This document shows positions 30,226-31,737 of a DNA stretch of 36,453 bases, in pieces. A model generated the notes under the pieces. The model searched no databases and was not told the DNA's origin. It saw only the letters and a list, made by a program, of their open reading frames with translations. The stretch is from Candidatus Saccharimonadota bacterium. GTDB taxonomy: Bacteria > Patescibacteriota > Saccharimonadia > Saccharimonadales > AWTP1-31. The stretch's first letter is position 1. Each line of letters starts with the position of its first letter. Where the stretch lies: the NCBI GenBank assembly GCA_003962975.1, contig RXKC01000030.1, positions 1,002 to 37,454 of the forward strand, written 5' to 3'. The position numbers and the translations under genes were made by a program.

Positions 30226-30867
30226 TTAAGCGGTTTGCTCACACAAAAACCTAATAGCCTTCTCAATCTTCTCGAACTCTTTTGTTCCACGTTTCGTTTC
30301 AAATTCTTCTTTACCATCTAGCCATTTTAACCATTCCGCAAACGTCTTTTGAGCGCATCCAACCTGTAAGTGTTTATCTGTCTTTGTTAATATCCATTTG
30401 CAGTAATTAGTTAATACAATAGGACTTGCTTTAGCCCAAGCATTGCCATACACCCGAGCATCGCCATACACCCAAGCATCGCCATACACCCGAGCATTGC
30501 CATACACCTGAGCATCGCCATACACCCAAGCATCGCCATACACCCGAGCATCGCCATACACCCAAGCATCGCCATACACCTGAGCATCGCCATACACCCG
30601 AGCATTGCCATACACCCGAGCATCGCCATACACCCGAGCATTGCCATGCACCTGAGCATCGCCATACACCCGAGCATTGCCATACACCTGAGCATCGCCA
30701 GACACCCAAGCATTGCCAGACATATCTAAACAGCTTTCTTTCTCAATATAACCGCCCAAATCGCCTTTAGTTATGTATGAGAAGCTAGTTAGAGCTTTTA
30801 TGCGAAAAACTTTTACACCAAAAATCGTTACTTTAAAATCTGTTTCAATTAGCTCATATTTTTTCAT
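30226..30867 (-). CDS. Left-handed-beta-helix hexapeptide-repeat protein with phage C-terminal domain
   Basis: 213 residues from ATG at 30867 (AGGAAAGTGAAT before it; a GTG two codons upstream is possible). Layout: N-terminal cap (1-45, MKKYELIETDFKVTIFGVKV), 16 near-perfect hexapeptides of the form G-D/N-A-x-V-Y (about 48-144) and a C-terminal domain (about 150-213) with DKHLQVGC, seven residues, then W. The hexapeptides fold as a left-handed beta-helix. The same C-terminal domain ends the pentapeptide-repeat protein at 31243. No transferase active-site His is evident in the repeats, so a scaffold or DNA-mimic-like role is more likely than acyltransfer. Confidence 0.75.
   Translation of the reverse strand: MKKYELIETDFKVTIFGVKVFRIKALTSFSYITKGDLGGYIEKESCLDMSGNAWVSGDAQVYGNARVYGDAQVHGNARVYGDARVYGNARVYGDAQVYGDAWVYGDARVYGDAWVYGDAQVYGNARVYGDAWVYGDARVYGNAWAKASPIVLTNYCKWILTKTDKHLQVGCAQKTFAEWLKWLDGKEEFETKRGTKEFEKIEKAIRFLCEQTA
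30435..30722. repeat. 18-bp tandem repeat array (16 units) coding the hexapeptides
   Basis: Units such as catcgccatacacccgag follow each other with changes mainly at the codon for the variable residue (Arg, Gln or Trp). Such an array can gain or lose units by slippage, changing the length of the beta-helix. Confidence 0.85.
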
Positions 30868-30921
30868 ATTCACTTTCCTATTTTTTTTATAACCAGTTAA
30901 TCACACGCTAATTTAAATTCG

Positions 30922-30998
30922 TTAGATAGGCAGGAATAGCTTTGTTTGATCGCATACCTGAACCCTATATAAGGTTACTCTTACGAGCCACTATCTAA
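30922..30998 (-). ncRNA. Cloverleaf-like RNA element (degenerate or unusual tRNA-like)
   Basis: Perfect eight-base arms TTAGATAG (30929-30922 complement) and CTATCTAA enclose 61 bases, giving the span of a tRNA. On the minus strand, after the first arm comes TGGCTCGTAAGAGT, which pairs as a short D-like arm (GCTC with GAGT), then AACC-loop-GGTT as an anticodon-like arm and CAGG...CCTG as a long third arm. The T-loop motif is not canonical, so it may be a decayed tRNA or another phage RNA. The rest of 30868-31242 apart from the two RNA-like elements shows no gene. Confidence 0.35.
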
Positions 30999-31045
30999 AT
31001 TAAATGTTTTTGGTGCGTATTCATTACGCCACCACCTAAATTTAT

Positions 31046-31179
31046 TGATGGGAGCAGGGATTTGACCGTTTAATCTTGAGCGTACCCAAAATTCCATTAC
31101 GGTAAAGTCACCCTGCATTGATGGAGTTATGGTCTAGAATCCATCGTCCAAATGCGTCTACCTATTCCGCCATCCCATC
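31046..31179 (-). tRNA. tRNA-Leu-like gene, unusually long (about 134 nt)
   Basis: Minus strand: acceptor GATGGGA pairs with TCCCATC at the other end (nine pairs counting flanks), followed by TGGCGGAATAGGTAGACGC, which is the D arm of class II tRNA-Leu. The 3' half ends TCAAATCCCTGC before the acceptor, as in a T arm, and its partner GCAGGG is present. About 40 extra bases lie between the T-stem halves and pair with themselves (ACCGT/ACGGT and AATTTTG/CAAGATT). The anticodon arm is irregular; the best loop, between ATGG and CCAT, holds TTCTAGA, which would put CTA as anticodon, but this is not secure. It may carry an insertion or be a pseudo-tRNA. Confidence 0.5.
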
Positions 31180-31242
31180 AAGTTGTTAAAGAGCTATTTC
31201 ACTTACTTTCCAACTACTAACAACTACTAATCTGCTACTAAT

Positions 31243-31737
31243 CTATTTAATATGATGCAACCAAGCTGATTTAATAAACTTCTTATTCTCTTCCCACCAA
31301 GGCAATGCTTCGCTGTGCATGTTAGCAATTTCTGAATCTTTAAACTTAAACCATTTTTCAGCTTCGTGTACTTGGCAACCTATTTGAATATGCTTCTCAG
31401 TTATATTTATCCACCACTTAAGACCGCTGATTTGGATAGGTATTTTTGTTATTTTCTCCCCATACAGGTTAGCCCCAGACAGGTTAGCCCCAGACAGGTC
31501 AGCCCCAGACAGGTTAGCCCCATACAGGTCAGCCCCAGACAGGTTAGCCCAAGACAGGTTAGCCCAAGACAGGTTAGCCCAAGACAGGTTAGCCCCAGAC
31601 AGGTTAGCCCCAGACAGGTTAGCCCCAGACAGGTTAGCCCCAGACTTAATAGCTAATTCAACTGCTAATTTCGTTGAATCCGCTTCACACTCAAAAATTA
31701 CTGAGAAATCAACCCTATTTTTAATTTGTATTTTCAT
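31243..31737 (-). CDS. Pentapeptide-repeat protein with phage C-terminal domain
   Basis: 164 residues. A short N-terminal strand domain ([20 protein letters not shown]) is followed by 12 pentapeptides A-N/D-L-x-x (about 35-92), which form a right-handed quadrilateral beta-helix, and by a C-terminal domain (about 104-164) with EKHIQIGC, seven residues, then W, and a [11 protein letters not shown] end. Pentapeptide proteins can mimic DNA or act as scaffolds; the C-terminal domain is known to me from many phage pentapeptide proteins. Same C-terminal module as in the hexapeptide protein at 30226. Confidence 0.8.
31461..31645. repeat. 15-bp tandem repeat array coding the pentapeptides
   Basis: About 12 units of caggttagccccaga with a few substitutions (for example ccaaga giving Trp codons and tcagcc giving Asp). 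Likely to expand and contract by slippage. Confidence 0.85.

What the first reader, a model, noticed from the sequence alone, without database searches (positions are those of the whole stretch)
30226..31737. One C-terminal domain on two unrelated solenoids
The hexapeptide-repeat and the pentapeptide-repeat protein both end in a module with D/E-KH-hydrophobic-Q-hydrophobic-GC, seven residues and Trp, followed by an acidic helix. The solenoids before it are different folds coded by 18-bp and 15-bp tandem arrays. This suggests a common docking or targeting module to which repeat scaffolds of variable length are attached, perhaps as adjustable DNA-mimic or decoy proteins.
Basis: partly seen in the sequence, partly recalled or inferred. 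Interest (0 to 1): 0.7.

Follow-up and report, generated by a model that had tools for sequence, protein, structure and literature searches.

The report
Shared end-domain on phage repeat rods
Two neighbouring phage genes make rod-shaped proteins of different folds that end in the same small domain, and related phages join that domain to rods of at least three kinds and many lengths, so the end piece appears to be the constant part and the rod the adjustable part.

Summary
Both genes exist (30226-30873 and 31243-31737, minus strand) and their C-terminal ~70 residues are homologous. A profile built without the hexapeptide protein finds its tail as the best match outside the training family (E 6e-6; 0 of 2000 shuffles reach its score). 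Profile-profile comparison gives 96.5% (P 1e-9; 0 of 200 column permutations reach it).

The detectable homology covers ~28 columns. AlphaFold2 gives both tails the same element order at identical spacing. No Pfam or NCBIfam model covers the domain; PHROGs has unnamed families. It forms two sister types, T1 (here on the pentapeptide protein) and T2 (here on the hexapeptide protein). Each occurs on both solenoids elsewhere; T1 also on leucine-rich-like repeats. A third tail, T3, not demonstrably related, also occurs on both.

The distance from last repeat to domain is nearly fixed and steps by about one repeat, while repeat runs vary from 4 to 31. I found no copy without a solenoid. I therefore read it as a rigidly seated end-cap that probably also assembles or docks the rod (about 0.45). 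DNA mimicry is not supported as a general role: solenoid charge is near neutral. Partner and function remain unknown.

The parts
31243..31737 (-). Pentapeptide-repeat protein gene (P0002, 164 aa)
   Evidence: ORF; Pfam Pentapeptide 1.6e-24
31642..31737 (-). N-terminal segment of P0002 before the repeats (about residues 1-32)
   Evidence: read from translation; phrog_31265 covers residues 1-92
31458..31645 (-). 15-bp tandem array, 12.5 copies, coding the pentapeptide solenoid
   Evidence: Tandem Repeats Finder
31246..31461 (-). C-terminal end-domain, type T1
   Evidence: T1 profile, E 2.1e-27 in whole genome; AlphaFold2 pLDDT 95.9, pTM 0.83
30226..30873 (-). Hexapeptide-repeat (YdcK-type beta-solenoid) protein gene (P0001); likely start ATG at 30867
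   Evidence: ORF; Pfam B_solenoid_ydck 2.1e-27; ribosome-binding-site spacing read
30703..30867 (-). N-terminal cap of P0001, shared with phage hexapeptide proteins
   Evidence: tblastn: 60 phage records; phrog_20149
30435..30722 (-). 18-bp tandem array, 16 copies, coding the hexapeptide solenoid
   Evidence: Tandem Repeats Finder
30229..30441 (-). C-terminal end-domain, type T2
   Evidence: T2 relatives; held-out T1 profile E 6.1e-6; AlphaFold2 same element order as T1

Best explanation
The two genes encode phage accessory proteins built as N-cap, tandem-repeat beta-solenoid and a homologous ~65-residue C-terminal domain (three to four short strands around the Gly-Cys motif, then two or three helices). 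SHOWN: homology of the two tails; each tail type on both solenoid folds; solenoid length varying by whole repeat units; near-fixed spacing between last repeat and domain. INFERRED: the domain sits rigidly on the last coil as an end-cap, closing the open edge of the solenoid, and its long C-terminal helix is an assembly interface (a head-to-head dimer, as in Qnr/MfpA-type pentapeptide proteins) or a docking face. The rod is the part that replication slippage can lengthen or shorten without touching the end piece. INFERRED: the proteins act early in infection and are dispensable. Their cellular target is unknown.
For: Homology. Both folds per type: T1 on hexapeptide in L002 (Aeromonas phage Aer_P220), L023 (Vibrio phage 1.209.O) and L171; T2 on hexapeptide in the window and L055; T1 on leucine-rich-like repeats in L054. 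Seating: distance from last-repeat core residue to GC is 25-35 (median 30) in 33 T1 pentapeptide proteins; in 32 T2 pentapeptide proteins it is 23-25 in 19, 29 in 12 and 39 in 1, steps of about one pentapeptide; repeat runs span 4-31. All 70 distinct tails with at least 30 upstream residues follow repeats (plus my reading of three rows the classifier left open). Cap-plus-dimer precedent: EfsQnr, AlbG and PENT have a C-terminal helix that caps the solenoid and makes the head-to-head dimer (PMC8145042, passages). Early and accessory: orf232 of phage L is in the early left operon with ral, kil and erf (PMC8022706, passages; ST104 map); two Rheinheimera phages keep the flanks but not the gene (H267, H268); neighbours include ERF, NinB, YqaJ and DNA methylases.
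Against: The P0001 model has a low-confidence linker (residues 60-64 and 66-68 of the modelled stretch below pLDDT 50; pTM 0.48), so rigid seating on the hexapeptide rod is not shown. With only four hexapeptide cases (24, 28, 29, 31) spacing cannot be called locked there. Two different solenoid cross-sections need not accept one cap. Beyond the ~28-column core T1 and T2 differ in sequence. No structure of such a protein and no dimer has been tested. The PDB fold search found no match at E <= 0.001.
Confidence: 0.45

Rival explanations
1. A docking module: the domain binds one conserved host or phage partner, and the solenoid is a spacer or a second binding face of tunable length.
For: The domain is the conserved part across solenoid folds and many phages (168 and 186 phage records), while the rods vary; residues such as I27 G28 C29 H32 W37 are invariant in 27 T1 tails.
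Against: In this survey it never occurs without a solenoid or on any other architecture, which a general docking module often would. Spacing to the last repeat is nearly fixed.
Confidence: 0.3
2. Pure end-cap: the domain only prevents fraying or aggregation of the solenoid and has no partner.
For: Strict dependence on solenoids and near-fixed spacing. C-terminal caps are frequent in solved pentapeptide solenoids (PMC8145042 passages) and described in ice-nucleation proteins (PMC10727499 passages).
Against: A mere cap need not be a conserved 65-residue domain shared by unrelated folds; one helix is enough in Qnr proteins.
Confidence: 0.15
3. Length-tunable DNA mimics or decoys.
For: Pentapeptide proteins of the MfpA/Qnr kind are described as gyrase-interacting DNA mimics (my recall; related titles). 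The ST104 gene lies next to ral.
Against: Solenoid charge is near neutral: medians -1.7 and -3.3 per 100 residues, 29 of 70 at -5 or below, 8 of 70 at +5 or above. Qnr models score far below their cut-offs. Hexapeptide rods share the same end.
Confidence: 0.07
4. The likeness of the two tails is convergence or chance around a GC-x7-W motif.
For: Homology is detectable over only ~28 columns; a third tail family (T3) has a similar-looking GC motif without significant profile similarity.
Against: Held-out profiles in both directions, shuffles and permutations, 15 of 18 T2 records found by a T1 profile, same predicted element order at constant offset.
Confidence: 0.03

Closest known systems
Qnr/MfpA-type pentapeptide repeat proteins (EfsQnr, AlbG, QnrB1, PENT)
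   Same: Pentapeptide solenoid with a C-terminal element that caps the coil and, in several, makes the head-to-head dimer (PMC8145042 passages).
   Different: There it is a single 10-12-residue helix; here a ~65-residue strand-and-helix domain that also occurs on hexapeptide and leucine-rich-like rods. No sequence membership.
YdcK / phage hexapeptide ('polymer-forming cytoskeletal', 'trimeric LpxA-like') proteins
   Same: P0001 has the same N-cap and 18-bp-coded beta-solenoid.
   Different: Of the nine phage relatives of the N-cap that I read, seven end in another tail (T3, GCFxGTxEEF or a variant of it) without significant similarity to T1/T2; the other two (L096, L097) show no such tail in the frame read.
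PHROGs 31567, 37032, 29257, 32789
   Same: 31567 matches 27 of 27 T1 tails and 9 of 38 T2 members; 37032 matches 26 of 27 T1.
   Different: No function or domain is described there; P0001's tail itself is not matched by 31567 at E <= 0.01.
Salmonella phage L/ST64T orf232 and ST104 orf19
   Same: Pentapeptide protein with a T1 tail; repeat number differs by one unit between L and ST64T.
   Different: Annotated as of unknown function; the paper passages that I saw do not mention the tail.

Membership tests
[quoted passage not shown] Pfam score above cut-off | tested here: met
   P0002 85.5 bits against cut-off 20.2; 12.5 units
YdcK beta-solenoid repeat (PF18836) | hexapeptide-type repeats above Pfam cut-off | tested here: met
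   P0001 93.1 bits against 30
YdcK family protein (NF040481, equivalog) | whole-protein score above 350 bits | tested here: not met
   61.1 bits
Qnr/MfpA quinolone-resistance proteins (NF033086, NF000349) | whole-protein score above 240 / 360 bits | tested here: not met
   26.1 and 27.0 bits for P0002
Bactofilin (PF04519) | polymer-forming cytoskeletal beta-helix | tested here: inconclusive
   P0001 29.6 bits against cut-off 27.9, weaker than the YdcK repeat on overlapping residues; polymerisation not testable
T1/T2 end-domain (defined here) | hydrophobic-x-hydrophobic-GC, seven residues, Trp; profile match; C-terminal to a solenoid | tested here: met
T3 tail of phage hexapeptide proteins (GCFxGTxEEF) | significant profile similarity to T1 or T2 | tested here: not met
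   hhalign 0.3% and 1.4%, 0.1% and 0.6%; 0 of 18 T3 records hit by the T1 profile
Any fold in the PDB (polo-box, RNA polymerase beta, RiPP recognition element) | clear structural match | tested here: inconclusive
   no Foldseek match at E <= 0.001; best VIA-align Z 4.2

The most novel reading that the evidence does not exclude
Phages have evolved an interchangeable-rod system: a single end-domain that recognises one conserved partner (host or self) is fused, again and again, to whatever slippage-prone beta-solenoid is at hand, giving length-tunable early effectors. Neighbouring hexapeptide and pentapeptide genes with matching tails (window; T3 pairs in L105 and L121) would then work together as mixed assemblies through the shared end.
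Probability: 0.2. Interest if true: 0.78.

Novelty: new variant of a known kind. Interest (0 to 1): 0.52.

Why it matters
Pentapeptide and hexapeptide solenoids are common in phages and mostly annotated as unknown or wrongly (MFS transporter, serine/threonine kinase, glycerol kinase, CRISPR spacers). A shared, unnamed C-terminal domain gives them a common handle. It provides a profile for annotation, a fold predicted with high confidence, and a clear experiment (what does the constant end bind, and does rod length matter?). It is also an unusual case of one small domain fitted to solenoids of opposite handedness (handedness recalled from general knowledge), which bears on how beta-solenoids are terminated.

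Tried and rejected
DNA-mimic reading: tested by charge, not supported generally.

T3 as the same domain: tested twice, the second time with 47 T3 hits, not significant, so kept apart. More T3 depth did not help.

Dsr2 (NCBIfam E 0.043), NinX (E 0.036) and DUF7389 (6 of 38 T2 members, best E 0.0068): taken as chance; no catalytic family was supported. PDB sequence search with the mixed profile: one chance hit (ebulin, E 1.4). No PDB fold match at E <= 0.001 and VIA-align Z 4.2 at most; absence of a listed family excludes none.

The structures of the two tails could not be superposed, because models give no coordinates here; only element order was compared. A viral-library search with the P0001 model was not run because the solenoid would dominate.

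A tRNA-like look of the 369-bp gap between the genes: ARAGORN and Rfam found nothing.

Which of the 98 neighbours matched DUF7666 was looked for and not found.

Rows dropped: nine repeat loci (L013, L020, L049, L050, L051, L057, L077, L080, L091) before counts of 77; seven of 77 with under 30 upstream residues before the 70; four of 77 without a measurable last repeat; L092 (GFF instead of GCF) before the second T3 profile's seed; L024 (cut by the record start) before the tree.

Tree: quick method, 72 columns, 40 of 71 inner branches weak; at least four solenoid changes over 78 tails, T1 and T2 split at 100. Long branches make the hexapeptide placements unsure.

Papers: searches (open-licence PMC only) listed no description of this shared domain. 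I read passages of PMC8022706, PMC8145042, PMC9305737 (plus one section), PMC10727499 and PMC6715854 (no hit for the terms), nothing in full.

Full report
CHECK OF THE OBSERVATION. The window holds two minus-strand genes, 31243-31737 (pentapeptide repeats, P0002) and 30226-30873 (hexapeptide repeats, P0001). Their coding arrays are 15 bp x 12.5 and 18 bp x 16.0. Pfam names the solenoids but nothing covers either tail in Pfam or NCBIfam. The tails align with each other at BLASTP E 1e-6, and a single-sequence search with P0001's tail over the whole 1.21-Mb genome finds P0002's tail at E 0.0012, the only other match in that genome.

HELD-OUT TESTS. I built a profile of P0002-like tails (T1, 34 rows) without P0001 or its kin. 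Among 2114 ORFs it scores P0001's tail at E 6.1e-6, best of all non-training sequences apart from second copies of P0002; of 2000 shuffles of the tail none reaches its 25.6 bits (best 8.1; 1962 entries were scored). The reverse profile (T2, 5 rows) finds P0002's tail at E 1.9e-4. Profile-profile comparison gives 95.5% (P 1.4e-8, 28 columns) and, with 39 and 38 rows, 96.5% (P 1e-9, 27 columns); 200 column permutations reach at most score 23.0 against 48.8. A T1 profile of 27 rows finds 15 of 18 T2 records (E 6e-7 to 1.4e-3) and 0 of 18 T3 records; its 14 of 14 T1 records are its own training rows or their kin. In the own genome it hits two places only, these two tails. So the shared domain is real, but the detectable homology is its first half (strand, strand, Gly-Cys, start of helix).

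STRUCTURE. AlphaFold2 models P0002's tail at pLDDT 95.9, pTM 0.83: strands 9-11, 18-20, 24-27, 30-33, helices 34-37, 42-46, 52-71. P0001's last 130 residues give pLDDT 82, pTM 0.48: in the tail, strands 77-79, 83-86, 89-92, helices 93-101, 113-129. The last three strands and the first helix start at a constant offset of 59. Relative orientation to the hexapeptide rod is uncertain (linker below pLDDT 50). PDB: no Foldseek match at E <= 0.001, best VIA-align Z 4.2. Predicted viral proteins: six matches at E <= 0.001; two of them carry a name and both are pentapeptide proteins.

MODULARITY. The L054 repeats are in frame with the tail, but the likely N-terminal part lies in another frame. Aeromonas phage PS has a hexapeptide N-cap hit near one end of its circular record and a T1 tail at the other; I infer a hexapeptide protein split by the record start. 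T2 tails sit on pentapeptide rods, on GGEFL-, GGAFL- and WKxGT-type repeats (L010, L069, L081) and on hexapeptide rods in the window and L055. Of 70 distinct tails with at least 30 upstream residues the classifier pentapeptide, 4 hexapeptide and 3 open; I read the three as two short pentapeptide arrays (L040, L046) and L054. On a quick tree of 78 tails T1 and T2 are separate at 100 and at least four changes of solenoid are needed; many forks are weak. The two window tails are thus not a local duplication.

THIRD TAIL. Of nine hexapeptide relatives of P0001's N-cap that I read, seven end in GCFxGTxEEF-like tails (T3). T3 also crosses folds: contigs L105 and L121 each carry a hexapeptide and a pentapeptide gene side by side, both with T3. 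T3 is not significantly similar to T1 or T2.

LENGTH AND SEATING. The longest unbroken repeat run ranges from 5 to 31 in T1 pentapeptide proteins and 6 to 29 in T2 ones; the two T1 rows with short arrays (L040, L046) have 4. Two T2 rows with truncated upstream sequence are left out of these ranges. Yet the distance from the last repeat's core residue to GC is 25-35 (median 30) in 33 T1 pentapeptide proteins and 23-25 (19), 29 (12) or 39 (1) in 32 T2 ones, i.e. steps of about one pentapeptide. Distances could be measured in 73 of 77 rows; the four hexapeptide cases give 24, 28, 29, 31. This argues for a domain mounted in register on the last coil. In Rheinheimera phages, of 47 listed rows that span the gene and flanks with at least 97% cover, nine are shorter by about 1, 3, 4 (three rows), 7 (two rows), 8 or 12 units of 15 bp, each within one base, and one by 55 bases; two further records keep flanks but not the gene (60 of 116 records listed). 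Phages L and ST64T differ by one 15-bp unit in orf232 (PMC8022706, passages). One Roseovarius MAG has five copies, ORFs of 250 (four) and 163 aa.

CONTEXT. In the window the genes lie downstream of Erf, YqaJ, a weak DUF1376 match and RusA in a phage with tail and head-tail adaptor proteins. In ST104 the gene lies between ral and the gene 17 region. Among 98 neighbours of T1/T2 genes, ERF, NinB, Terminase_2 and DNA methylase appear twice each, the others listed once (98 of the 243 neighbours found, mostly immediate plus-strand ones). This fits an early accessory region without naming a function.

FUNCTION. The best-supported reading is an end-cap that is also an interface. Known pentapeptide proteins have C-terminal caps, and in EfsQnr, AlbG and PENT the cap helix makes the head-to-head dimer (PMC8145042, passages; that review's main text holds the word 'phage' 0 times). 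Ice-nucleation proteins show the importance of a solenoid's C-terminal end and cap for assembly (PMC10727499, passages). Solenoid charge is close to neutral, which speaks against a general DNA-mimic role. The target remains unknown.

NOVELTY. The open-licence searches listed no description of this shared domain; subscription literature was not searched. Capping domains on solenoids are a known kind; one homologous cap on several unrelated solenoid folds, with slippage-variable rods, is a new variant as far as I could see.

Noticed in passing
L105:1-738 and 932-1546; L121:391-1152 and 1286-1894: Two viral contigs carry neighbouring pentapeptide and hexapeptide genes that share the T3 tail, an arrangement parallel to the window's.
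   Followed up: partly
L023:2628-2941 (Vibrio phage 1.209.O): The hexapeptide-coding tandem array is annotated as CRISPR spacers on the opposite strand; probably a false call caused by the 18-bp repeats.
   Followed up: no
L002:2539-3210 (Aeromonas phage Aer_P220): The real hexapeptide gene with T1 tail is unannotated; an out-of-frame ORF over its array is labelled MFS transporter.
   Followed up: yes
L048-L052 (Roseovarius MAG OX638333): Five copies of a T1 pentapeptide gene in one chromosome, four of 250 aa and one of 163 aa, probably related prophages.
   Followed up: partly
window 30411-30713 and 30431-30709 (minus); 31366-31656 (plus): The 18-bp and 15-bp arrays keep further frames open over about 280-300 bp, giving repetitive overlapping ORFs; no evidence that they are genes.
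   Followed up: no
window 30874-31242: Gap of 369 bp between the two genes with short direct repeats at 31211-31244 and a tRNA-like look by eye; ARAGORN and Rfam find nothing.
   Followed up: partly
whole window (G000 contig C29): Of 379 genomes of the phylum searched, only the window's own has clear T1/T2 matches (two others weak, E 0.0066 and 0.0083), and the listed relatives are 0.4-1.6 Mb; the phage contig may be misbinned, so the host is unsure.
   Followed up: partly
L132:1901-2749: A T3 tail followed by about 20 more residues ending in DVSGSME, in a 184-kb contig: possibly a tail followed by another domain.
   Followed up: no
L081:2021-2698: T2 tail on an unusual Trp-rich WKxGT/WKxGI five-residue repeat with no Pfam match.
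   Followed up: no
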